A stretch of DNA of 64,000 nt from Fibrobacter sp. (GCA_017503015.1 JAFVTX010000073.1:1-64000), one strand, 5' to 3'; positions 43,856 through 55,910 are shown, counted from the first letter of the stretch. Made by a program: numbers and translations. The notes: a model not told the origin generated them from the sequence alone.

Positions 43856-46723
43856 TTAGGGCGCGGCGTTTTCTACGCAGCGGACAAATGCGGGTTGTGA
43901 AAAATCATAATTACCAATGTCATGTAAATTTTGGGTAAAGCCGAATAGCTCTATCGTATAATACTTGGATTCGGGCGTAGTAGCAGTTATAAAGTAGGTT
44001 GATTGTCCGATTTCTTCGCCCTCTGAATGTCCCCAACTGTAGTATTGTCCTGTACCAAGTATGGATAATCCCGTAGAATTCGTCGGGGCTTGTTCTTTGC
44101 TGAACCATGTCCACCCATCAACAGCCTTTAATGCTCTAGACGGAGCGACTTCACCATAAACAGATATGACGAAATCAAAAAGTTCGTTCCATTCGTCATA
44201 TGTAGGTATATGCCAGCCATTAGGGCATAAGCCTTGATGTTTATCCGTGATAGGGTAGCTTGCGGCAATGCGATTTTTGTATATGGGCGATATGTTCATG
44301 GCTGCCGTCCAAGAATAATGATAGCCGGACTTGCTGCAGTATTTTTCGTCATTCCAGGGGCATAAATTTTCCTCGGCCAAATTTGCCAATGTGGTGGCGT
44401 CAGCTTTTTCCCCCGCGTAGTGCAGATTCTCAGCCATCCAGTTTTGTGTGCCGATGACTACAGTCCTGTAAGTTTGCCCATCGCGCTGGTCAGTTAAAGT
44501 GCCATAGGTAATATCTGGATTGAACCAGGAATCCTTTTCCATATCGATAAGGAGCAAGGAATACCACAACCCGCTCTTGCATATAAACGAATTATTGTAT
44601 ACCTTCTTCACGGCACTCTCGTTTTTGCTATTGCAGGTTCCCAAGATGGCCAGAAGTTCCGGATCAATGATGGATGTATTCTCGTCGTAGGGAGAGTCAA
44701 TGGTGGTGGCGGATTGCTGGGAAGAACTGCTTTGCTTGACCGACGAACTGGAATTTTCGCTGGATGTGGGCGCGGCGTTTTCTACGCAGCGGACATTGAA
44801 TGCATCAGATGTGCTAATGAATTCCTTTATGTTATTTTCGCTGTAGAAAAATTCCTGGATAGCAAGGCAGGGTATGCCCAGCGAGATTGTTGGAACATCT
44901 CCAGAAATAAAGGCTGTTGATACGCCCATATCGATTCGTCCCCATGATTCAAAGGTCATCCCCGTGGCGAGCATCGAAAAGCCGGTTACATTTGTCGGGG
45001 CAATATCCTTGCTAAACCAGACCCAACTGTCGGAGGCTCTTATTGCGCCGAGGCCTTCACTGTAGGTATTCTTCACGTATTCGATGAGAACGTTCCATTC
45101 TTCTTTAGAGGGGATATGCCACCCATCGGGGCAAATTCCTTGGTGGTTGCTTGTAATAGGGTAGCTGCTTACGATTCTTGTCCTGTATGTGGGGGAAAGG
45201 TTCATAGCTGCGGTCCAGCTGTAGACATACCCGGCCTTTTCACAATATTCTTCGTCTCCGGAGGGACACAGGTTTTCATCTGCCATATTTGTCGCAAGTT
45301 CCTCGCTCGCATTTTCGCCCGCATAGTGCAGGTTCTCGGCCATCCAGTTTTGTGTGCCGATGACAACGGTTCTATAAGTTTGTCCGTCTCGTTGGTCAAT
45401 CAGTGTACCATAGGTAATATCTGGATTGAACCAGGAATCCTGTTCCATGTCGGCGAGGAGAAGGCTATACCACAGTCCGCTTTTACATACGAATGAAGAA
45501 TTGAAAGCCTTCTTGACCGACCCCTCGCTTTCGCCGTTGCACGTTCCCAGTATGGCAAGGACTTCCGGGTCGATGATGGATGTTTCTTCTTTGTAGGGCG
45601 GGTCGATGGTGGCGGTGGACTGCCTAGAGGAACTACTGCGTTTTATAGAGGAACTGGAGTCGCTGGAACTGGAGTCGCCGCTTTCCGATGAGTCGTTTGC
45701 CGAACTAGAAGAACTTTCAGCAGAAATGCTTGAACTGGAAGATTCTTCTGTTGAGCTTGATGATAGTTTTTTCCCAAGCAGGTGCCAATGCAGTTTTTCG
45801 CAAATAAATTTTTCATTGAAATAACGGGATTTGGGGTTTGTGTCGGGGCGGATTTCGCCCTCCCTCTTTTCGGTGCACCTGCCTAGCCCGAAAACATCGC
45901 TCCAGAAATATTCAACGTAATTCTCGAACATGGAAATTTTTTGGGAAATGTTCCAGCCCAGGATGTTCTCACGGACTTGGGCCAACTCGACTTCGAAGGC
46001 GTTATCTGCGGATTGGGCCCGTTCCAGGGAGTCGTTCCAGACGCCGTCCTCTTCGATGTCCTTGGCTAGGTCTGCCAGGGAAAGGGAGAATTCGCCTTCG
46101 CTCCTGCCGGCCTGCATGATGATGGAGATGGTGAGCAGAACGGCATCGCCGTCGGCATTTCCGAATATGTCCAGATCCTCCACGCTTTCGCCCGCAAAGT
46201 CCTCGGCAAAGGCTTCGAAGATTTCCTGGTCCGCAATTTTCTTGGCTTGCTTTACGGTCATGTCCTCGTTTTGCGCAAGCCATAGCGCCCGCTCGTATTC
46301 CAGGTGGGTGAGCAGGTTGATGTTCACGTTGTCGCGGTCCGAAAGGTCGGAGATGGCGTTTAGGGTAATCTGGCTTGCAGATACCTTTCCCGTTACTTCG
46401 TTGCGGTAGAACCCGTCGACACGCAACAGGGCGTACTGCGACGCCAGTTCGATTTTGGAGATGGCGAAGGTGCCCATGTCTTCCGATATTCTGCCCAAGA
46501 AACTCTTTCCCGTCTGGGCACGGGTTTCAAAGTTCAGTTCGTACAGGGTCACGCTGGAACCCTTCACAAACGGCCCCTTTTGGGACACGCCCGCAATGTC
46601 CTTGTTCTCGATGGCGATGGAGTTTTCGGCTTCCGAGGTGCCGCCCGCGTTCTTGTCTTTGTCGGAACAGGCGACAACAAACAGGAGCAGGTAAACCAGA
46701 AGGGCGACGAATCTCAGGTACAT
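43856..46723 (-). CDS. Large lipoprotein with two tandem FISUMP domains
   Basis: The 955-aa lipoprotein has a lipobox FVVAC (Cys about 19) and an N-terminal domain of about 300 aa (KGPFVKGSSVTLYELN, INLLTHLEYERALWLAQ) found in many Fibrobacter lipoproteins. A serine-rich linker (about 315-365) follows, then two FISUMP domains (about 440-645 and 745-955), each opening with SWFNPDITYGTL, DQRDGQTYRTVVIGTQNWMA and closing with VRCVENAAP. A second short Ser linker separates them. The two domains are very similar at DNA level over their first 130 bp, so one arose by recent duplication. It is likely a surface-exposed binding protein. It follows the TIGR02147 gene by one base and is probably controlled with it. 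Confidence 0.9.
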   Translation of the reverse strand: MYLRFVALLVYLLLFVVACSDKDKNAGGTSEAENSIAIENKDIAGVSQKGPFVKGSSVTLYELNFETRAQTGKSFLGRISEDMGTFAISKIELASQYALLRVDGFYRNEVTGKVSASQITLNAISDLSDRDNVNINLLTHLEYERALWLAQNEDMTVKQAKKIADQEIFEAFAEDFAGESVEDLDIFGNADGDAVLLTISIIMQAGRSEGEFSLSLADLAKDIEEDGVWNDSLERAQSADNAFEVELAQVRENILGWNISQKISMFENYVEYFWSDVFGLGRCTEKREGEIRPDTNPKSRYFNEKFICEKLHWHLLGKKLSSSSTEESSSSSISAESSSSSANDSSESGDSSSSDSSSSIKRSSSSRQSTATIDPPYKEETSIIDPEVLAILGTCNGESEGSVKKAFNSSFVCKSGLWYSLLLADMEQDSWFNPDITYGTLIDQRDGQTYRTVVIGTQNWMAENLHYAGENASEELATNMADENLCPSGDEEYCEKAGYVYSWTAAMNLSPTYRTRIVSSYPITSNHQGICPDGWHIPSKEEWNVLIEYVKNTYSEGLGAIRASDSWVWFSKDIAPTNVTGFSMLATGMTFESWGRIDMGVSTAFISGDVPTISLGIPCLAIQEFFYSENNIKEFISTSDAFNVRCVENAAPTSSENSSSSVKQSSSSQQSATTIDSPYDENTSIIDPELLAILGTCNSKNESAVKKVYNNSFICKSGLWYSLLLIDMEKDSWFNPDITYGTLTDQRDGQTYRTVVIGTQNWMAENLHYAGEKADATTLANLAEENLCPWNDEKYCSKSGYHYSWTAAMNISPIYKNRIAASYPITDKHQGLCPNGWHIPTYDEWNELFDFVISVYGEVAPSRALKAVDGWTWFSKEQAPTNSTGLSILGTGQYYSWGHSEGEEIGQSTYFITATTPESKYYTIELFGFTQNLHDIGNYDFSQPAFVRCVENAAP

Positions 46724-46724
46724 T

Positions 46725-47585
46725 TTACGAATCCTTGTTGGGATGTTTCTTTTGCATTGCGGGCGGAATTTTCTGGGAAAGGGGGAACAGCTGCAGGTTC
46801 AGTTCGTAGACCCGCTCTGTCCCCTGGTCTTTGGCTGCAATATCCACCACCTTGCGTCGAAAGTTCTGCATCTCGGCAACGATATCTTCGTACGCCCCTT
46901 CGGTAAGCCCCAGGGTAATGGTGGAAAAGTTCCGCTCCGAAACGGGAACGCTGTCCAGGGATTCCACGGCCAGGTTCCCCATTTGCCGGTGAAGGTTCCG
47001 CACCGCCATCACCGAAGAGGGGAGCGTCCCCGTAGAAATAGACTTGCGGCCCTGCGTGTATTGCCCCTTTCTGGTGGACTTGCGCAGGAGTTTGCTGCGG
47101 GTCAAGAACTTGAGGCTTTGGGCGACGGCGTCTGCGCTGACCTCCGGAAAACAGAGCTTGGCGAGCCCCTTCGGGCTTGCCGAATCTACGGATGCGGCAA
47201 GTTCCCGTATGGCCGAATTTAGCCAGTTGGAGTAGTATTCGAAAAACGCCCTTTCGAGAACGCCGACCCTGTTGCTCAGAATGATTTCTTGCAGGCTATT
47301 AAAAATCTCTGTTTTTGTTTTGGCATCCTTTGCCTGGTCATAGGCTACCAGGAGTACAAAAAAGTCGCTTTCGAATCCGGAAAGGCCCATGGCGCTTGCA
47401 ACGCGGACTCTGGCTTTTTTTGAGAGCCCGCTCTTGCCCTCGCATACCAGTTTCAGATACACGGGTGAACTGAATTTCGCGGCCTTCGCGAAACTCCTCC
47501 ACGAAAAGCCGGCAATTTTCTTCTGCTCGGCATAGTAATCCGCCATATACTTGCGGAAATCCTTGTATTCGTATATGGACTTCAC
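46725..47585 (-). CDS. TIGR02147-family protein
   Basis: The 286-aa protein begins YEYKDFRKYMADYYAEQKK and continues FSWRSFAKAAKFSSPVYLKL, the signature of TIGR02147, a family multiplied in Fibrobacter. The N-terminal 90 residues look like a helix-turn-helix domain and the C-terminal part is of the DUF4423 type, so it is probably a transcriptional regulator. It is separated by 1 nt from the FISUMP lipoprotein gene, its likely partner or target, and lies divergent from the FISUMP/cargo run starting at 47887. The intergenic region holds repeated GATAC words that may be its sites. Confidence 0.88.
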   Translation of the reverse strand: MKSIYEYKDFRKYMADYYAEQKKIAGFSWRSFAKAAKFSSPVYLKLVCEGKSGLSKKARVRVASAMGLSGFESDFFVLLVAYDQAKDAKTKTEIFNSLQEIILSNRVGVLERAFFEYYSNWLNSAIRELAASVDSASPKGLAKLCFPEVSADAVAQSLKFLTRSKLLRKSTRKGQYTQGRKSISTGTLPSSVMAVRNLHRQMGNLAVESLDSVPVSERNFSTITLGLTEGAYEDIVAEMQNFRRKVVDIAAKDQGTERVYELNLQLFPLSQKIPPAMQKKHPNKDS

Positions 47586-47886: not shown

Positions 47887-48423
47887 ATGAAAAAAAGAAA
47901 TGTTTCTCTTAAAAATAAAAAAAGGTTAGACGCTTATGTCATTGTCGGTGACCCTAATATGGGCAAGTCCAGTGTCGCCAGGCATTTATATGGGGCCACA
48001 AAAGGCCCTTATAATAGGACTGCCGGAAATATCTTAATAAAACCGATTAGGCTTTTGAATGGCAATATAATTCGTGTTGGTATAGAAGGTTATCAGTCGC
48101 TTCAGGAAGCTGGTGTGTCTCCGCAACAATTCGCTAATTATCTACAGAAATTAAAGCAGCGACCCGATGCGATTCTGTTCACTCTACAGCTCAATCCTCG
48201 TCCAAAATTGAATGCGGGCGCTCAGGCTTATTTTATTGCACTGCGTAGAATACTTCATATTGTCGCAACGGCTGTTCTTGATGTAAATCCCAATGCAGTG
48301 CATAATTTCCCCAATAGTCGTACATTTCAGTCATTTCCAAAAGGCGTTCCAATGGCCGGAAGTGCGGTCATTACAACAAATGAATTAGCACGAAGCGTAA
48401 GACAATTTTTTCAATGGGTTTGA
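47887..48423 (+). CDS. Small P-loop NTPase-like protein
   Basis: The 178-aa protein has a Walker A motif GDPNMGKSS (Gly21, Lys27, Ser28) after a basic N-terminus and a beta strand (DAYVIVG). A possible switch strand RVGIEGYQSLQ follows, and ILFTLQLN and VATAVLDVN may be later core strands. No full G-protein motif set (NKxD) is visible, so it could be an NTPase or nucleotide kinase. I do not recognise a named family. The ATG at 47887 follows GGGTGGAG. It is the first gene of the plus-strand FISUMP/cargo run; the next gene begins 9 nt after it. Confidence 0.75.
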   Translation: MKKRNVSLKNKKRLDAYVIVGDPNMGKSSVARHLYGATKGPYNRTAGNILIKPIRLLNGNIIRVGIEGYQSLQEAGVSPQQFANYLQKLKQRPDAILFTLQLNPRPKLNAGAQAYFIALRRILHIVATAVLDVNPNAVHNFPNSRTFQSFPKGVPMAGSAVITTNELARSVRQFFQWV

Positions 48424-48432
48424 GAAGTAAAT

Positions 48433-49065
48433 ATGGAAAAAACAAAAATAAAATTACTCGCCAAAGTCATTAGTATGACGGGTCTTGTGCTTATCTTTGC
48501 CGCTTGCGGCGATGATAGCAATCCAACTAATACGGAGCAAACTAATACGGAGGTCACGTCACTTGTAGACGTAAGAGATGGAAAGACATATAAAATCACG
48601 ACTATTAGAAGCCAGATTTGGATGGCGGAGAACTTGAACTATGAAACGGCAGACAGTTATTGCTATGGAGATGTTGCTTCCAACTGCGCTATATATGGTC
48701 GTCTATACAGTTGGTTTGATGCTTTGACTGCTTGCCCCAGCGGATGGCATTTGCCCGACTCTTTGGAATTTAAGGCCTTATTCTTAGCAGTTGGCGGCAG
48801 AGATGTGGCAGGTAAGTTGCTCAAGTCCACTACAGGATGGGATAGTAACGGCAATGGTACCGATGACTATTCCTTTTCGGCGTTGCCTGCAGGTTTCTAC
48901 GATGGGGTTTTCCGCGCCGCGGGCAGCATCGCGTACTTCTGGAGTTCTACGGAGAGAAGCGACGGCAACGCGAGCATCATGCTCTTGGACTTCGCTTTCG
49001 ACAGAGGGTACTTCCTTAACTTCCCTAAGCCCACGGGGTTGTCTGTTCGTTGCCTTAAGGATTAA
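48433..49065 (+). CDS. FISUMP-domain lipoprotein
   Basis: The 210-aa lipoprotein has the lipobox FAAC (Cys about 25) and one FISUMP domain: VDVRDGKTYKITTIRSQIWMAENL, YGRLYSWFDALTACPSGWHLP, GGRDVAGKLL, FSALPAGFY, AYFWSSTE and LSVRCLKD. The stretch between AYFWSSTE and SVRCLKD is very different from that of the FISUMP protein at 51909, although the flanking DNA is the same. It is probably an outer-membrane or periplasmic lipid-anchored binding protein. Spacing of 9 nt to the P-loop gene indicates co-transcription. Confidence 0.9.
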   Translation: MEKTKIKLLAKVISMTGLVLIFAACGDDSNPTNTEQTNTEVTSLVDVRDGKTYKITTIRSQIWMAENLNYETADSYCYGDVASNCAIYGRLYSWFDALTACPSGWHLPDSLEFKALFLAVGGRDVAGKLLKSTTGWDSNGNGTDDYSFSALPAGFYDGVFRAAGSIAYFWSSTERSDGNASIMLLDFAFDRGYFLNFPKPTGLSVRCLKD

Positions 49066-49111
49066 CTAAAAAACGTAATCAAATTAAACAACAGTCTTCC
49101 AAGGAGGAAAT

Positions 49112-49387
49112 ATGAAAAAGGAAACCTATATCCGGAAATTGAAAAAGAATCCTGTTTTGAGTTCTGCGAATTTATTCGCTAGCGCAGATGATATGATTAC
49201 TCTGATAATAGAATGTAAACATAGGGTTGGTGAAATATCATTTGTTAATACTCACCATACAGGTTTTACAAATGACGACTTGAAAACAGATGAAAAGTTT
49301 TTTGTTGCCATAGTAGAATTCATGAATATGGAAAATAAAAAGATTATTTCAAAGGTACACAAGATTGATATAGAACGAGATTTCTAA
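49112..49387 (+). CDS. Small protein coupled to the metallo-beta-lactamase gene
   Basis: The 91-aa protein has a basic start (KKETYIRKLKKNP) and mixed alpha/beta composition, with no signal peptide or membrane segment. I recognise no family. AAGGAGG precedes the ATG. Its stop TAA shares its last base with the next gene's ATG (TAATG), so the two proteins are translationally coupled and probably act together. Confidence 0.75.
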   Translation: MKKETYIRKLKKNPVLSSANLFASADDMITLIIECKHRVGEISFVNTHHTGFTNDDLKTDEKFFVAIVEFMNMENKKIISKVHKIDIERDF

Positions 49388-50490
49388 TGATTTACAATAC
49401 TAAAACATTTTATGCCGTTGGACAAGGTGGTTTCTACTCCGAACGGATATGGAGTAATGGAATGGACTACACAATCGTATATGATTGTGGTGCTGTTGTC
49501 GACAAATCGTTAGAAGGACCAACAATTGAACTGGGAAATGCTATAGACAATTCTGGATTTGAGAGAATAGATTTTGTCGTAATTAGCCATTTAGATGAAG
49601 ATCATATCAATGGTCTAAAAAAATTGAATAGATATGTCAATCAAATTGGACAAAAAAGGCCTCCTGTTTTAATTCTTCCTAATCCGACTCCCTTGGATAG
49701 GCTTCTTTTCTTTAGTTCTGTATCAATTAAAACCATGGAAATTTTTTTCGATATAATAAGCAATCAGCCGGTCTTGTGTATTTCCAGTGAAGGAGACAAT
49801 GACGAAACGGAAATAGCATTAAATGCTGACTGGAAAAAGGGAATGAACAATCCTTTTTCTCACAACCGTGTATTTACCTTATTTGGATGTACAGATTGTT
49901 CTGAAAAGTGGTTGCTGAAATTTTATGTTGATAGGTCAAAGTATGCTCTTCAATTCGATTTATTATTGAAAAAAGAACCTGCGCTAATTGATTTGATAAA
50001 AAGTATAAAATCAATTAAAGATTTTGAATTTTCTAAAGAAAAGTTGGTGCGCGCTTACAAAAAAATTTCAGAGAAAGGCAAAACTTATGGAGATAAGAAT
50101 TGGTCAAGTATGGCGATGATTTCTGCGCCATTCATCCATGATATGCAAACGAGGAATTGTGAACGGGGTGTAGAGTCTCCTTACATTTCGTGGATGAATG
50201 GTGATATAAGGTTGAAGGATGATAATGAGATGCTGGCCATTGAACAGCATTTTGCGGATTTCTTATCCCTAAATATTGATTTTCAAATACCCCATCATGG
50301 AAGCCATAATAATTTAGGGCGTATTCCAGCTTTTAACAGGCGGGTTCGGACCTACATTTGGGCGGGAGAAGACAATCAGTACGGTCATCCTAACGGAACA
50401 ATCTTACGAATGCTAAAGAGAGCAGGACTTAAAATCAATTGGATTACCGAAAACGATTCGCATATCGTTCGCCACGAAAAATGGCTTTAA
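49387..50490 (+). CDS. ComEC-type metallo-beta-lactamase-fold protein
   Basis: The 367-aa protein has the metallo-beta-lactamase metal motif as SHLDEDHINGL (H68, D70, D72, H73) and the C-terminal IPHHGSHNN (about 301-309), the pattern of ComEC/Rec2-related hydrolases. It lacks membrane segments, so it is a free soluble enzyme, not a DNA uptake channel. The middle (about 150-260) is divergent. The substrate is probably a phosphoester, perhaps nucleic acid, by family analogy. Related free-standing MBL genes occur in conflict and defence loci. It is coupled to the 91-aa gene and followed by a FISUMP gene after 9 nt. Confidence 0.85.
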   Translation: MIYNTKTFYAVGQGGFYSERIWSNGMDYTIVYDCGAVVDKSLEGPTIELGNAIDNSGFERIDFVVISHLDEDHINGLKKLNRYVNQIGQKRPPVLILPNPTPLDRLLFFSSVSIKTMEIFFDIISNQPVLCISSEGDNDETEIALNADWKKGMNNPFSHNRVFTLFGCTDCSEKWLLKFYVDRSKYALQFDLLLKKEPALIDLIKSIKSIKDFEFSKEKLVRAYKKISEKGKTYGDKNWSSMAMISAPFIHDMQTRNCERGVESPYISWMNGDIRLKDDNEMLAIEQHFADFLSLNIDFQIPHHGSHNNLGRIPAFNRRVRTYIWAGEDNQYGHPNGTILRMLKRAGLKINWITENDSHIVRHEKWL

Positions 50491-50499
50491 GGAGGCCTT

Positions 50500-51876
50500 A
50501 TGGCACAAAAAACAAAAACGGTTCTCTCGGGTTTCGCACTTGCCCTCGTTCTCGCTGCTTGCAGCGATGGAACAGTGCCTAGCAATGCGGGGTCAAATAT
50601 TCCAGGCTCGAAAGAGTCACTTTCGTCGGGAACCATGACGGATCCTCGTGATGGCCAGGTTTATAAGATTGTGACGATAGGTCCCTGGAGTTTGATGACA
50701 GAAAACTTGAGATATGATGCCATGGATCATTGTGAACACACGCGTCCATGCGCGTGCATAGAAGAAAATGAATCGGGATGCATTAAATGGGGATTAAGTC
50801 AAGACGACCGTAAATGTTTTGCAAGGGCAGGAGAGACATTGGTATGCGTTAACTGGGCGGAAAGTGCTGATTCTGACTTTATGTGCAATAATTATGGAGA
50901 ATATTACAACGTGATTGGCACGAGTATGGAATGTCTTGAAAAGAGTAAAATTTACGGAGTTGCTTATCAGAGGGATGAAGAAGTTTGTCCAGAGGGATGG
51001 GTTCGTCCATCGTGGGTGGAATGGTCCGTTGTTCTTCACAAAATTTATGGTGAGCCAGAAAATTTTGATGAACATGATAGGTATTCTCTAGATTATGATC
51101 CGCTCAATTTTTTTGATGGCAATGATTTTTTTTCAAAAATAAAATTACCAATTCATGGTTTGGGCACCATAGATTATGAGCAAAAAGCTCTTGTCGTATT
51201 TAATGAAAACGAGTTTTCATCATTGAATAGAGATAGATATTTTGTAAGATGCATGTACACTGTTCCCTGTGATAGGGCGAATTTTGGTGAGAATCGAGAT
51301 GGATATATATGTTCACAAACTGGATGGGGAGATGCGACAGTGTTCGAAACAATGACAGATGAACGTGATGGCAATGTTTATCGGGTTGTCATCATTGGAT
51401 CTCAAACCTGGATGGCCGAGAATCTTAATTTCGAGACAGAAAACAGTCACTGCTATGCGGATGATCCAGCCAACTGTGCCCAGTATGGTCGGCTGTACGC
51501 CTGGAATGCTGCAATGAGTGCCTGCCCCAGTGGATGGCATCTACCCAGTTCTGCGGAATGGAATACCTTGTTTACAACGGTGGGAGGGCAGTCTATGGCG
51601 GGCAAGGCTCTCAAGTCGGTGACAGGTTTTCCTATTGACGCTCCTGGCCTCAGCGACGGTACCGATGCTTTTGGGTTTGGTGCCTTGCCTGCGGGCAATG
51701 ACAACGAGGCCTACGATATCAGGAGTGACGGCGCATACTTTTGGAGTTCTTCGGAGTATGATGATGATTGGGACTTCGACTCATACTATATATCCTTGCA
51801 CAACTATGACGACAATGCGTATCTGGGTGCTTCTGCCAAGGATCTTGGCTTTTCTGTCCGTTGTGTAAAAGACTAG
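50500..51876 (+). CDS. Lipoprotein with two FISUMP domains, the first divergent
   Basis: The 458-aa lipoprotein has the lipobox LAAC (Cys about 22). The first FISUMP domain (about 43-255) starts MTDPRDGQVYKIVTIG and has a shortened core with many Cys (CEHTRPCACI) and ends FVRCMYTVPC. The second (about 285-458) is regular: MTDERDGNVYRVVIIGSQTWMAENL, YGRLYAWNAAMSACPSGWHLP, FGALPAGND, YFWSSSE, FSVRCVKD. GGAGG sits before the ATG and the gap to the MBL gene is 9 nt. The extra cysteines may form disulfides in the periplasm. Confidence 0.9.
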   Translation: MAQKTKTVLSGFALALVLAACSDGTVPSNAGSNIPGSKESLSSGTMTDPRDGQVYKIVTIGPWSLMTENLRYDAMDHCEHTRPCACIEENESGCIKWGLSQDDRKCFARAGETLVCVNWAESADSDFMCNNYGEYYNVIGTSMECLEKSKIYGVAYQRDEEVCPEGWVRPSWVEWSVVLHKIYGEPENFDEHDRYSLDYDPLNFFDGNDFFSKIKLPIHGLGTIDYEQKALVVFNENEFSSLNRDRYFVRCMYTVPCDRANFGENRDGYICSQTGWGDATVFETMTDERDGNVYRVVIIGSQTWMAENLNFETENSHCYADDPANCAQYGRLYAWNAAMSACPSGWHLPSSAEWNTLFTTVGGQSMAGKALKSVTGFPIDAPGLSDGTDAFGFGALPAGNDNEAYDIRSDGAYFWSSSEYDDDWDFDSYYISLHNYDDNAYLGASAKDLGFSVRCVKD

Positions 51877-51908
51877 CAATTTAAATGTTGCTATAGGGTG
51901 ATTCTCCA

Positions 51909-53396
51909 ATGAAAATGTTCAAAGAGAAATTCAATATGATGCCGTCTCGCACGATTAAAGCGATAGCATCTCTCTTGTTACTTTGCATTGTGTTGCTGCT
52001 CTCTGCCTGCAGCGACGAGACGGTACCCTCTGTACCCATGGATAGCGCTATCCCGCAGGACGGCGATGGCGGTGGGGTTGTGGTAGATGTTGAGAATGCG
52101 GAAAACGTCCCGACTGGGGAACCTGGCGAATTGGACGGGGCAACCAATGTCCAAGGAACATCTTCTAGCGAAATGGCTCCTCTTGATCCGCCGATTTCTA
52201 GTAGCAACCAAAACGTAGTCTCTAGTTCTTCTGTCTCATCTGTACAAGTTACTACTGCTATTTCAAGTTCAAGCATCAAAGAACAAAGAAGTGGGACTTT
52301 TGTTGATCGGCGTAATGGCCAAGTCTATAAAACCATAACTATAGGGAATCAAGTATGGATGGCAGAAAACTTGAAATATGAAACTCCTTATTCTCTCTGT
52401 TATAGTAACAATGAATCGAATTGCTCAATATTTGGCTATTTATACCAGACCAATGCTTTACATAACAATTCGGTATGTCCCGACGGATGGCATTTGCCAA
52501 GTAAAAAGGATTTTTTGGAATTGATTTCAAATGCGGGTGGAGAACAAAATGCTGGTCTAACTCTTAGGGCGGATTCATCATGGATAGGAGAGAACGGCGT
52601 AGATGAGTATGGTTTTGCAGCGCTGGCATCGGGTTATTCGGTAAACCAGGCTAATCCATTCCGCGGGAAAGGGGAAGAGACCATGTTTTGGAGTAATGAT
52701 GAAAAAGGTTTTTTGCACCTAACCGGCGAAATAGCGGAATATGTGGAGAACGTAGACAATTCTTTGGATGCTTCAAAGCATTCGTTTTCTGTACGATGTG
52801 TGGGGGGAGGGGGCACAACGTTGTCTTCCTCATCACAATTTGCTGACAATCCCGGCTCAAGTTCTGCCGAGTCGCCTCCGGGAACATTTACCGATTCTCG
52901 TGACGGGCAAGTCTATAAATATGTGACTATAGGAAGTCAAGTGTGGATGGCGGAGAACCTGAACTACAAAACGTCGCCATCTTGGTGTTACGAAGGTTCT
53001 TCTTCCAAATGCGCCGAGTACGGTCGCCTCTACACTTGGTCGGCAGCGAAAACTGCATGCCCCGCGGGCTGGCACTTGCCCGATACAACTGAATGGCATT
53101 CTTTGTTCGATGCTGTGGGCGGAAGTTCCGTAGCAGGCGTGATGCTCAAGTCTGCTACGGGCTGGGAGAACGATTGGAACGGAACTGACGCCTTCGATTT
53201 TTCCATCTTGCCGGCTGGCCGTTTCTACGACTATAATGGCTACTTCTACGACGCCGGCAGAAGAGCGTACTTCTGGAGTTCTACGGAGTACCGTGATTTC
53301 TACGCGTACCACATGAATTTTGAATACGACTATGCGAGCCTGGACGAGGCCGGCAAGGACGTCGTTGGGTTCTCTATTCGTTGTCTTAAGGACTAG
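51909..53396 (+). CDS. Lipoprotein with two FISUMP domains and a Ser-rich linker
   Basis: The 495-aa lipoprotein has a long N-terminus before the lipobox LSAC (Cys about 34); a start at one of the later Met codons (MMPSRT) is possible. A Ser/Thr/Pro linker (about 75-125) leads to FISUMP domain one (about 130-300: VDRRNGQVYKTITIGNQVWMAENL) and domain two (about 325-495: TDSRDGQVYKYVTIGSQVWMAENL, CPAGWHLPDTTEWHSLF, YFWSSTE, FSIRCLKD). A short stretch GGGGTTLSSSS joins them. It is 32 nt after the previous FISUMP gene. Confidence 0.9.
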   Translation: MKMFKEKFNMMPSRTIKAIASLLLLCIVLLLSACSDETVPSVPMDSAIPQDGDGGGVVVDVENAENVPTGEPGELDGATNVQGTSSSEMAPLDPPISSSNQNVVSSSSVSSVQVTTAISSSSIKEQRSGTFVDRRNGQVYKTITIGNQVWMAENLKYETPYSLCYSNNESNCSIFGYLYQTNALHNNSVCPDGWHLPSKKDFLELISNAGGEQNAGLTLRADSSWIGENGVDEYGFAALASGYSVNQANPFRGKGEETMFWSNDEKGFLHLTGEIAEYVENVDNSLDASKHSFSVRCVGGGGTTLSSSSQFADNPGSSSAESPPGTFTDSRDGQVYKYVTIGSQVWMAENLNYKTSPSWCYEGSSSKCAEYGRLYTWSAAKTACPAGWHLPDTTEWHSLFDAVGGSSVAGVMLKSATGWENDWNGTDAFDFSILPAGRFYDYNGYFYDAGRRAYFWSSTEYRDFYAYHMNFEYDYASLDEAGKDVVGFSIRCLKD

Positions 53397-53466
53397 TAGC
53401 CAACTTATGATATTTAAGAGACATTATTTGATATTGAATGTGTATTACCTTAAAAAAGGAGTAAAG

Positions 53467-53574
53467 ATGGAATTGATTGAAAGGATTATACAGTACATAA
53501 AGGGGAAAATTCAAAAAAGGAAAAAGGAACAGATTATAAAAAAGAAAATCAAAAAAATTCAAGATGACTTTTAA
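53467..53574 (+). CDS. 35-aa lysine-rich peptide
   Basis: The open frame of 35 codons has a good ribosome binding site (AAGGAGTAAAG directly before the ATG). The product starts MELIERIIQYIKGK and continues with a run of Lys, Ile and Gln that would form an amphipathic basic helix. It lies between a FISUMP gene and the interrupted nuclease gene. It may be a small partner or antitoxin-like peptide of the latter, or a leader peptide; no family is recognisable. Confidence 0.5.
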   Translation: MELIERIIQYIKGKIQKRKKEQIIKKKIKKIQDDF

Positions 53575-53612
53575 GAAAATAAATCATTGATTCAATAAAA
53601 AGGAAATTTAAA

Positions 53613-54404
53613 ATGAATGAGATTTATCGGGCAAATGTTAACGAACGATACAAAAGTCTTTACTCAATATATTTGGGCAAGAAAATTTTGAAAGAGGGCC
53701 TATTAGAGGCAGGACAAGTGACAGTTGTTGCGGATTATGAACCTCCAATTGATAAAAATGAGGATACATCCCTGGTTCTTACCTGTGGACTTAATGCGAA
53801 TAATTCAATTTTATCGGGCCTGAAGAAACTGTATACTTTAGGTGTTTTAAGTGTAGGAGATAATCCCTATGAAGTTATAGATAAACATAGTATTCGGTTT
53901 ACAAAAAAAATCAAAAAGCCGCTAGCGGACGAAACATTTTTGGACACAGGATTTGAAAAAAATCCCAGTGAAAATACAAGTATTGTATTTGAGCGAAAAA
54001 ATTTGAAACACATACATATAGAACCATTTAGACCCGAAAATCTCTCTTATTGGGAACCAAAATCTGAAACAGATATTTATATGGCTTGGGGTATTTTACA
54101 GGAATATACGGGGTACAAGTATTGTTGAGGGACAACTATTGCGTTGTTGAGAGATTTGGGGTATGAAGCGTCAAACGATACAAAACCAGATGCAATTTTA
54201 ATAAATGATGCTACAAACTGTTATGAAATTGCCGAAATGAAAACACGTTCTTCTGATTTTGATCGAAACCACAAAAAAGAAGATATTGATGTTCTTGTTG
54301 TGTGGCATGATGATGAACAGGATAGATCAAAGTTGCCAAGAACTGTAATAGAACTTTACCAAACAGCAAAGGATGCTTTGAATGATATAATGGATGAAGA
54401 TTAA
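53613..54404 (+). pseudogene. PD-(D/E)XK nuclease-like gene interrupted by an in-frame TGA
   Basis: One 264-codon frame is broken only by TGA at 54126-54128 (codon 172). After it the same frame continues as GTTIALLRDLGYEAS and KPDAILIND (Asp193), EIAEMKTRS (Glu208, Lys210) and KKEDIDVLVVWHDDE, a good PD-(D/E)XK core of the restriction-endonuclease kind. The N-terminal 170 residues are unrecognised. AAAAGGA precedes the ATG. Explanations are a nonsense mutation (TGG to TGA, Trp to stop, is one base), a sequencing error or recoding; a selenocysteine role is unlikely because the site (YC-stop-GTT) is not one known for selenoproteins. It is AT-rich and lies in the FISUMP/cargo run. Confidence 0.75.
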
Positions 54405-54423
54405 ACAGAATCAAGGAGAGCCT

Positions 54424-55527
54424 ATGCGATTCAACAATGTAACATTATGTCTAGTGGGCGTTGTGCTTGTGTTTAACGCCTGCGAGACTTCCACACAACC
54501 TGCGGTGCAGCAGACCGTCCAGGTACCAAGCGACGATGCCGCAACCCTGGAAGACCTGCCCAACTGCACCGGTAGTCGCGAGGGCGACATCGAGAGAGTA
54601 GCCTCGGAAAAGACGTTCTACATCTGTAGCGACGGCAAATGGGGGCCGCTTCAGATAACGAAGGAGACCGGGGACAATCCCAAAAGAGAAGACGGTTACG
54701 GTGCGGCGGCGTCAAACGGCACGCAGGATGACGACAATACGCCAACATCGTCGGTAACAGTCGTTCCCTCGTCATCTGGCATGGACATTCCGGCATTGCC
54801 TTCGGGGGATGAATCTTCGTCTTCGGCTAGCGTGATTCCGTCATCGGCAAGTGAGGTGGTGATAACGCCCTATCCAAGCGTAAGAGTGACTACTGTCTCA
54901 GCCATCGATTGCTCAAATGCGATGTACTGCCCGCAGGATTGCATGCACACGTCCGAAACAACCCGCTGCGGCAAGGTCTATACCGGCCTGGATGACGGGA
55001 CCGGGACCCAGGGCTACCTATGGTCGTACACGGATTCAGATAACGGAGGGACGAGTTCTTTTTATTGGCCTTCAGGGATGGCCTTCGGCAGTTTCGAGGT
55101 CCCCTCCAGGGACAATCTCGGCTATCTGAAGGGGACCGCCCAGTTCGGGAGCGGCTTCGAATACCCCTTCGTCCGCCTGGGTTTCCATATTGCAGGCGAA
55201 AAGAAATCTGCGGATATCACGACATGGGGCGGCATGTGCCTGGTCTATTCCGCGACACAGGACTTCTATCTCATCGTCAGGTTCAACGGTGACGATGAGG
55301 CGACCGGCTCCGACCTTATCCAGGCGAAGATTCCCTTGAAAAAGGACAAGTCTCTTGCCAATGTAACTTGGGCCGATTTCATACAGGAAGGCTGGGGGAC
55401 TGCCGTAGACAAGGGAGAGGCAATCGCCAAGGCCGCTCGCATTGAAATTGGGTTTAAGGGAAGTGCCGGAACGACCAATGACTTTTCCATCTATGCCATA
55501 GGCAAGTACGGCACCTGCGACTGGTAG
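54424..55527 (+). CDS. Lipoprotein with Ser-rich linker and beta-sandwich-like C-terminal domain
   Basis: The 367-aa lipoprotein has the lipobox FNAC (Cys about 20). A small domain (about 45-75, GDIERVASEKTFYICSDGKWG) common in Fibrobacter lipoproteins and a Ser/Pro/Thr linker (about 100-160) precede a C-terminal domain of about 200 aa with many Gly, aromatic and beta-strand residues (GYLWSYTDSDNGGTSSFYWP, FVRLGFHIAGE, WGGMCLVYSATQDFYLIVRF). This last part resembles a carbohydrate-binding beta-sandwich, but I cannot name a family. The start at 54424 follows AAGGAGAG. It is the last gene of the plus-strand run and is GC-richer than the cargo genes. Confidence 0.75.
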   Translation: MRFNNVTLCLVGVVLVFNACETSTQPAVQQTVQVPSDDAATLEDLPNCTGSREGDIERVASEKTFYICSDGKWGPLQITKETGDNPKREDGYGAAASNGTQDDDNTPTSSVTVVPSSSGMDIPALPSGDESSSSASVIPSSASEVVITPYPSVRVTTVSAIDCSNAMYCPQDCMHTSETTRCGKVYTGLDDGTGTQGYLWSYTDSDNGGTSSFYWPSGMAFGSFEVPSRDNLGYLKGTAQFGSGFEYPFVRLGFHIAGEKKSADITTWGGMCLVYSATQDFYLIVRFNGDDEATGSDLIQAKIPLKKDKSLANVTWADFIQEGWGTAVDKGEAIAKAARIEIGFKGSAGTTNDFSIYAIGKYGTCDW

Positions 55528-55554: not shown

Positions 55555-55585
55555 AAGCGGCTCCCCATCGGGAGCCGCTTAGATG
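55555..55585 (+). terminator. Terminator of the FISUMP/cargo run
   Basis: AAGCGGCTCCC (55555-55565) and GGGAGCCGCTT (55570-55580) form an 11-bp stem, followed by a short T-rich sequence. It closes the 47887-55527 gene run. Confidence 0.8.
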
Positions 55586-55603: not shown

Positions 55604-55900
55604 CTACTTTCCCAGAATCGCTTCTTCGGAAAGGTTGAACCGTCGGGTCAAAATTTCTATGGAAACTCCGTCTTGGAGGAGCCCCCTGGCCGTGTTCAAT
55701 TTGTCTTCGTTGGCTTTTGCTTCAAGTTTTTGTTGCGTGTCGGCAATCTGTTGGCGAAAAACATCACCGGCGCTCACAAAGCCGTATTTCTGTCCTATGC
55801 TCTTGAAGGCCATGCTCAACTCCTCGATGAGGTTGTCATCTACGTACTCTTCTAAATATAAACTCATTTTGACTTTTTGCCAATGTTGCCATTTTTCCAT
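55604..55900 (-). CDS. Small helical protein, resembling the C-terminus of Rpn-type nucleases
   Basis: The frame of about 98 aa ends DKLNTARGLLQDGVSIEILT and RRFNLSEEAIL, which is the usual C-terminal pattern of Rpn/PD-(D/E)XK transposase-family proteins (a helical ARxxLxxGxxxExIxxxTGLSxEEI tail). The N-terminal nuclease domain is missing, so it could be a remnant or a stand-alone C-terminal module. There is no ribosome binding site; the start could be ATG 55900 or 55867. Tandem palindromes lie just upstream (55911-55945). Confidence 0.5.
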   Translation of the reverse strand: MEKWQHWQKVKMSLYLEEYVDDNLIEELSMAFKSIGQKYGFVSAGDVFRQQIADTQQKLEAKANEDKLNTARGLLQDGVSIEILTRRFNLSEEAILGK

Positions 55901-55910
55901 ATTGAGCAAA

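What the first reader, a model, noticed from the sequence alone, without database searches (positions are those of the whole stretch)
47887..55527. Tightly packed run alternating FISUMP lipoproteins with cytoplasmic cargo genes: candidate undescribed system
Nine plus-strand genes lie in close succession: P-loop protein, FISUMP, 91-aa protein overlapping an MBL-fold protein, FISUMP, FISUMP, 35-aa peptide, PD-(D/E)XK gene with a stop, lipoprotein. Gaps are 9, 46, -1, 9, 32, 70, 38 and 19 nt, and a terminator follows. Secreted lectin-fold lipoproteins combined with soluble enzymes resembling nucleases and an NTPase is an unusual partnership. One reading is a surface-sensor/effector conflict system; another is a FISUMP array acting as homologous landing sites that collect cargo genes. 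The sequence does not decide between them.
Basis: partly seen in the sequence, partly recalled or inferred. Interest (0 to 1): 0.7.

Follow-up and report, generated by a model that had tools for sequence, protein, structure and literature searches.

The report
Swappable gene cassettes between lectin-like genes
In Fibrobacter, small cell-interior genes that resemble anti-phage genes sit directly in front of genes for lectin-like surface proteins, and related species carry different ones at the same chromosomal spot, which points to an exchange system for defence-like genes that I found no description of.

Summary
The nine-gene run is real at the stated coordinates, and it is not a chance cluster.

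(1) The pairing recurs. Four families of soluble genes (P-loop NTPase, 91-aa/MBL pair, a DUF2971-like protein, a 174-aa protein) were searched by sequence. Outside the discovery loci, 20 of 22 genomic loci have a secreted-protein gene directly downstream on the same strand: FISUMP, or GLUG in three cases. An unrelated accessory gene (RhuM) shows this at 0 of 30 loci.

(2) Cargo is swapped at fixed sites. At the window's own TtcA site, five species carry arrays with three different cargo sets; four relatives lack the array. At the HipBA-Suf site, MBL and DUF2971-like cargo sit upstream of the same resident terminal FISUMP domain. Between the window and its closest relative, the 91-aa/MBL cassette is nearly identical inside more diverged flanks, and both edges of that patch fall inside FISUMP genes.

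Best explanation: a cassette-exchange locus with FISUMP genes as homology arms; the cargo is probably conflict genes. Exchange is well supported, the defence function is inferred, and sensor-effector coupling is untested. The PD-(D/E)XK-like cargo is broken.

The parts
47887..48423 (+). Cargo 1: P-loop NTPase (178 aa), Walker A GDPNMGKS
   Evidence: Homologues in 6 of 168 Fibrobacterota genomes, each followed by a secreted-protein gene; predicted P-loop NTPase fold
48433..49065 (+). FISUMP1 lipoprotein (210 aa)
   Evidence: TIGR02145 186 bits; lipobox in the sequence; left edge of the low-divergence patch lies inside it
49112..49387 (+). Cargo 2a: 91-aa protein
   Evidence: A similar small ORF (L023:8034-8303, resemblance read by eye in the N-terminal part) precedes the MBL homologue in G049; no family match
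49387..50490 (+). Cargo 2b: MBL-fold protein (367 aa)
   Evidence: Motifs HLDEDH and PHHGS; weak matches to LmuA, RTasMBL, 6A-MBL and ComEC
50500..51876 (+). FISUMP2 lipoprotein (458 aa, two domains)
   Evidence: TIGR02145 248 bits; right edge of the low-divergence patch lies inside it
51909..53396 (+). FISUMP3 lipoprotein (495 aa, two domains)
   Evidence: TIGR02145 370 bits; second domain replaced in G064
53467..53574 (+). 35-aa lysine-rich ORF
   Evidence: ORF with a ribosome-binding-like AAGGAG upstream; absent in G064
53613..54404 (+). Cargo 3: PD-(D/E)XK-like gene broken by TGA at 54126-54128
   Evidence: Motif PDAIL...EIAEMK in the sequence; 41-aa remnant in G064
54424..55527 (+). Closing lipoprotein (ORF opens at 54394; the start at 54424 with GGAGAG fits better)
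   Evidence: conserved in G064, truncated remnant in G024
55555..55580 (.). Terminator-like hairpin, both strands
46725..47585 (-). Divergent DUF4423 (TIGR02147-type) putative regulator, followed by the FISUMP lipoprotein gene 43856-46723
   Evidence: PF14394 98 bits; the same divergent pair borders the arrays of G082 and G085
48517..51057 (.). Low-divergence patch shared with G064, taken as a recent exchange tract; both ends inside FISUMP genes
   Evidence: 5 differences in 2541 nt against about 2.3% in the flank; pS 0-0.005 in p91 and MBL against 0.08-0.10 in flanking genes

Best explanation
The run is a cassette-exchange locus. Each cassette is one or two soluble cytoplasmic genes placed directly upstream of a multi-copy secreted-protein gene (FISUMP, sometimes GLUG), in the same orientation and probably co-transcribed with it. 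Homologous recombination within FISUMP genes and the conserved outer flank replaces cargo, so that one chromosomal site carries different cargo in different species while a resident FISUMP domain stays. Shown: the recurrent pairing, the cargo replacement at fixed sites, and one patch of recent exchange bounded by FISUMP genes. Inferred: co-transcription, and that the cargo works in anti-phage or other conflict, since several families resemble known or candidate defence proteins. What FISUMP adds to that function is unknown; it may be only the recombination arm plus an independently useful surface protein.
For: Pairing: 20 of 22 non-discovery loci, control 0 of 30. Replacement: TtcA site with P-loop/MBL, SIR2 or c206/DUF2971-like cargo, and relatives without the array; HipBA-Suf site with MBL or DUF2971-like cargo upstream of a shared last FISUMP domain; FISUMP domains group by site, not by cargo. 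Exchange: 8 differences against 57.6 expected in 48440-50960, patch ends in FISUMP1 and FISUMP2; repeated FISUMP2-3 junction and a replaced domain in G064. Joint presence or absence at the DnaX site. Defence-like cargo: SIR2_2, DUF2971/PDC-S31, weak MBL similarity to LmuA/RTasMBL, plasmid MBL relatives near NACHT and WYL genes.
Against: Only one clear exchange tract was mapped. The fixed order cargo -> secreted gene is not predicted by recombination arms alone. Most of the genome's FISUMP genes carry no such cargo. PADLOC matches to the P-loop, p91, c174 and c206 proteins: none. Relatives are mostly draft metagenome genomes.
Confidence: 0.62

Rival explanations
1. Each cassette is a functionally coupled two-component conflict system: the secreted lectin-fold protein senses, blocks or binds an attacker at the surface, and the cytosolic partner is its effector or immunity factor.
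For: Strict order and tight or overlapping spacing across families at 24-32% identity; GLUG, another secreted protein, can stand in for FISUMP; cargo resembles effectors.
Against: FISUMP partners follow the site and not the cargo, so no partner specificity is visible; an outer-membrane or periplasmic lipoprotein has no evident route to a cytosolic effector, and no membrane-spanning link was seen in the run; MBL in G006 has no such partner.
Confidence: 0.2
2. Mere co-transfer: cargo and FISUMP happen to sit next to each other in an old genomic island that is inherited and moved as one block; neither a recombination role nor a functional link exists.
For: Several loci share flanks and are not independent; FISUMP genes are very numerous.
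Against: The same site has unrelated cargo upstream of a related FISUMP domain; the low-divergence patch ends inside FISUMP genes; RhuM, also a mobile accessory gene, is not paired.
Confidence: 0.12
3. FISUMP variation here is made by a diversity-generating retroelement, with cargo as bystander.
For: Fib_succ_major is a reported DGR target domain in human microbiomes (PMC4159848), and the C-terminal part differs between G000 and G064.
Against: No reverse transcriptase (PF00078) in this 99.94% complete genome although control genomes ring; the variation is by insertions, deletions and whole-domain replacement.
Confidence: 0.03

Closest known systems
Type VI secretion auxiliary clusters and immunity-gene arrays of Vibrio cholerae (PMC5361080; title and abstract only)
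   Same: Conflict genes displaced one after another at a fixed locus, leaving arrays and remnants (comparison from abstract and general knowledge)
   Different: No secretion-system or effector/immunity genes recognised in this run; the repeated element is a secreted lectin-fold gene that follows each cargo
Defence islands and defence hotspots
   Same: One site, many alternative defence-like genes, frequent decay; BREX genes and a RhuM gene lie at the TtcA site of other Fibrobacter species
   Different: Here cargo alternates with paralogous surface-protein genes; no integrase or prophage carrier was recognised in the run
Diversity-generating retroelement target proteins with Fib_succ_major or DUF1566 domains (PMC4159848)
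   Same: Same domain family and C-type-lectin-like fold
   Different: No reverse transcriptase in the genome; variation by recombination
MBL-fold defence proteins (6A-MBL, Avs1a, LmuA, RT-associated MBL)
   Same: MBL motif region, weak HMM hits
   Different: Far below curated cut-offs; partners are a 91-aa protein and FISUMP
FISUMP proteins counted as 'other cellulose-binding proteins' in Fibrobacter (PMC4704652)
   Same: Same family TIGR02145, 54 in F. succinogenes S85
   Different: No earlier report found of cytosolic partner genes or of a recombination role

Membership tests
FISUMP (TIGR02145) | Score above the curated cut-off of 41.65 bits | tested here: met
   186, 248 and 370 bits
C-type-lectin-like fold (FISUMP domain) | Predicted structure matches solved C-type-lectin/FGE-like folds | tested here: met
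   pLDDT 90; Z 10.3 CarF, 8.9 Bd2740, 8.6 Lcl, with C-type lectins at Z 6.5-7.9 below; a prediction, not a solved structure
P-loop NTPase (cargo 1) | Walker A motif and P-loop fold | tested here: met
   GDPNMGKS conserved in all homologues; best Z 8.1 to P-loop NTPase folds, middling
Curated MBL defence families (NCBIfam 6A-MBL, Avs1a) | Score above the curated cut-off | tested here: not met
   21.8 against 220 and 18 against 420 bits
PD-(D/E)XK nuclease (cargo 3) | Recognisable nuclease core | tested here: inconclusive
   Motif by eye only; no HMM or PDB sequence match
DUF2971 / PDC-S31 (cargo c291, elsewhere in this genome and in relatives) | Pfam gathering score of 22 bits | tested here: inconclusive
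   One member reaches 22.7 bits, others 15.6-16.7 or none; PDC-S31 E 1e-19 to 3e-23
SIR2-like (cargo in G067) | PF13289 gathering score of 24.5 bits | tested here: met
   26.4 bits
Diversity-generating retroelement | Reverse transcriptase gene | tested here: not met
   No PF00078 match in the genome
Integron-type cassette array | Integrase gene and attC sites | not tested
   No integrase family among the Pfam hits of the genes in the run, but attC sites and an integrase elsewhere were not searched
Anti-phage defence system | Reduces phage infection | not testable with these tools
   Needs an infection assay

The most novel reading that the evidence does not exclude
FISUMP-cargo cassettes are a modular two-component conflict system: a secreted lectin-fold protein acting at the cell surface together with one of many interchangeable cytosolic effectors, spread between Fibrobacter species by recombination through the FISUMP gene itself.
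Probability: 0.2. Interest if true: 0.85.

Novelty: new variant of a known kind. Interest (0 to 1): 0.62.

Why it matters
FISUMP is a very large paralogous surface family of a major fibre-degrading rumen genus and has no settled function. If FISUMP genes are the arms by which defence-like genes are exchanged, that gives a testable reason for part of their abundance, and FISUMP becomes a bait for finding new defence genes in Fibrobacter, the genus with the third-highest mean defence-system count in one rumen survey (PMC11834463). Several cargo families here (P-loop, p91, c174, c206) match no known system.

Tried and rejected
Diversity-generating retroelement: rejected, no reverse transcriptase. 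Phage origin: the P-loop, p91, PD-(D/E)XK, c174 and c206 proteins have no PHROG match at E 0.01, an MBL scan of viral contigs found no relative, and the PD-(D/E)XK gene (read through its TGA for the search only) has no relative in the plasmid or phage records. Membership of a curated MBL defence family: cut-offs not met. Known RNA elements: none. Single-operon test by promoter scan: uninformative, 27 matches against 16.5 expected. P-loop relatives in the genome collection: five loci, all Fibrobacterota. 'FISUMP' gave no hits in the paper library. The SIR2 cargo was found only in G067, so its pairing cannot be tested independently.

Full report
Observation. The nine plus-strand ORFs exist with the gaps given. 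Three are FISUMP lipoproteins far above the family cut-off. The genome has 81 FISUMP domain matches, and I counted 62 FISUMP ORFs in the regions fetched around them. Most of those sit alone, in tandem, or beside other secreted-protein genes, so tight pairing with rare cytosolic genes is the exception.

The proteins. The FISUMP domain is predicted to have a C-type-lectin/formylglycine-enzyme-like fold: pLDDT 90, Z 10.3 to CarF, 8.9 to Bdellovibrio Bd2740, 8.6 to Legionella Lcl. The P-loop protein has a Walker A motif and a P-loop NTPase fold and occurs in 6 of 168 genomes of the phylum. The MBL protein has weak similarity to defence MBL proteins, below cut-offs, and to ComEC. A plasmid relative in Pseudomonas putida lies near a NACHT gene and one in Hymenobacter near a WYL gene. 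The PD-(D/E)XK assignment is by motif only; the gene carries an in-frame TGA, and in G064 only its last 41 residues remain. It looks like decaying cargo.

Recurrence of the pairing. P-loop homologues at 25-32% identity lie directly upstream of FISUMP at two further Fibrobacter sites and upstream of a GLUG-type protein in another genus. The 45% MBL homologue in G049 is preceded by a small ORF resembling p91 and followed by FISUMP. A survey of the genome's own FISUMP genes gave two more cargo families: a 174-aa protein (c174) and a 291-aa DUF2971-like protein (c291; candidate defence family PDC-S31). Searching these by protein sequence alone showed the same arrangement in nearly all relatives. 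Over all non-discovery loci, 20 of 22 have a FISUMP or GLUG gene next on the same strand. After collapsing shared sites by my own judgement it is 12 of 14, or 9 of 14 counting FISUMP alone. The control gene RhuM gives 0 of 30 same-strand; one RhuM has an opposite-strand FISUMP or GLUG gene next to it. The Fisher P values (2e-12, 4e-9, 3e-6) assume independence, which related genomes do not fully have; some of the c174 loci share a flanking gene and may be one site.

Replacement of cargo at a fixed site. At the window's site, between the divergent DUF4423 gene and TtcA, G067 has FISUMP-SIR2-FISUMP-degraded SIR2, G082 has c206-c291-FISUMP, G085 has c206-FISUMP-c291-FISUMP, G024 has only a 3' remnant of the closing lipoprotein, and G031, G066, G072 and G073 lack the array. 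The G085 contig ends before TtcA, so its placement rests on the left flank. At the HipBA-Suf site, G049 carries p91-like-MBL, and G050 and G052 carry c291 cargo. The left flanks are 91-95% identical up to the cargo, and the best DNA similarity on the right is in the last FISUMP domain, at 79-83%. FISUMP domains group by site rather than by cargo. At the DnaX/PheT site the P-loop-FISUMP pair, with an upstream gene resembling PDC-S68, is present in G049 and G051, while G047, G048 and G050 have DnaX next to the 126-aa gene.

Recent exchange bounded by FISUMP. Between the window and G064, flanking genes differ at 8-10% of synonymous sites, MBL at 0.5% and p91 at none. Differences are frequent up to 48516, inside FISUMP1; then only five occur before 51058, inside FISUMP2. 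Over 48440-50960 there are 8 differences against 57.6 expected (P 3e-16). A low synonymous rate argues against protein-level selection as the cause. The plain reading is recent transfer of the p91-MBL cassette with crossovers in the flanking FISUMP genes. G064 also shows a repeated FISUMP2-3 junction and a replaced FISUMP3 domain, as unequal recombination would leave.

Mechanism. I commit to a cassette-exchange locus with FISUMP as homology arm (0.62). Shown: pairing, replacement at fixed sites, one exchange tract. Inferred: co-transcription and a conflict role of the cargo. Not shown: any interaction of FISUMP with cargo. The strict order cargo -> secreted gene, and the fact that GLUG can stand in for FISUMP, leave room for functional coupling (0.2), but GLUG is also repetitive and could equally be an arm.

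Novelty. The kind (a variable locus that collects conflict genes) is known; the anatomy (soluble cargo alternating with paralogous surface lectin-fold genes that also serve as recombination arms) was not found in the papers searched. The library is open-access only, so this is weak evidence of novelty.

Limits. The relatives are mostly draft metagenome genomes; contig ends, strain mixtures and frameshifts (G064 FISUMP3) may be assembly faults. ORF starts were called by rule and several gaps are uncertain.

Noticed in passing
window 52802-52815 (inside FISUMP3): A G-rich tract (GGGGGGAGGGGG) between the two FISUMP domains is shorter in G064, where the frame is broken; possible phase variation or an assembly fault.
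   Followed up: no
window 43856-47585; L040, L046, L156, L158: A DUF4423/TIGR02147-type gene directly upstream of a FISUMP lipoprotein gene (gap 1, -4, -8 nt) recurs within the genome and borders the arrays; a possible regulator-surface protein pair.
   Followed up: partly
L100 and L101 (TtcA site of G018 and G062): BREX genes (PglZ) in G018 and a RhuM gene in G062 lie next to a FISUMP gene beside TtcA, so the site may be a defence hotspot in the wider genus.
   Followed up: partly
L028:3544-7728, L160:9056-16744, L162:9276-13913: Very large GLUG-type secreted proteins take the place of FISUMP downstream of P-loop or c291 cargo.
   Followed up: partly
L130-L135, L149-L153: A divergent 91-aa helix-turn-helix-like gene (not p91) precedes c174 at most of its loci; it may be part of that unit or mark one shared site.
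   Followed up: no
window 55604-55909; L085:2654-3589; L156:10798-11712: Transposase_31/Rpn-like genes, in part truncated or duplicated, close the array on the TtcA side.
   Followed up: no
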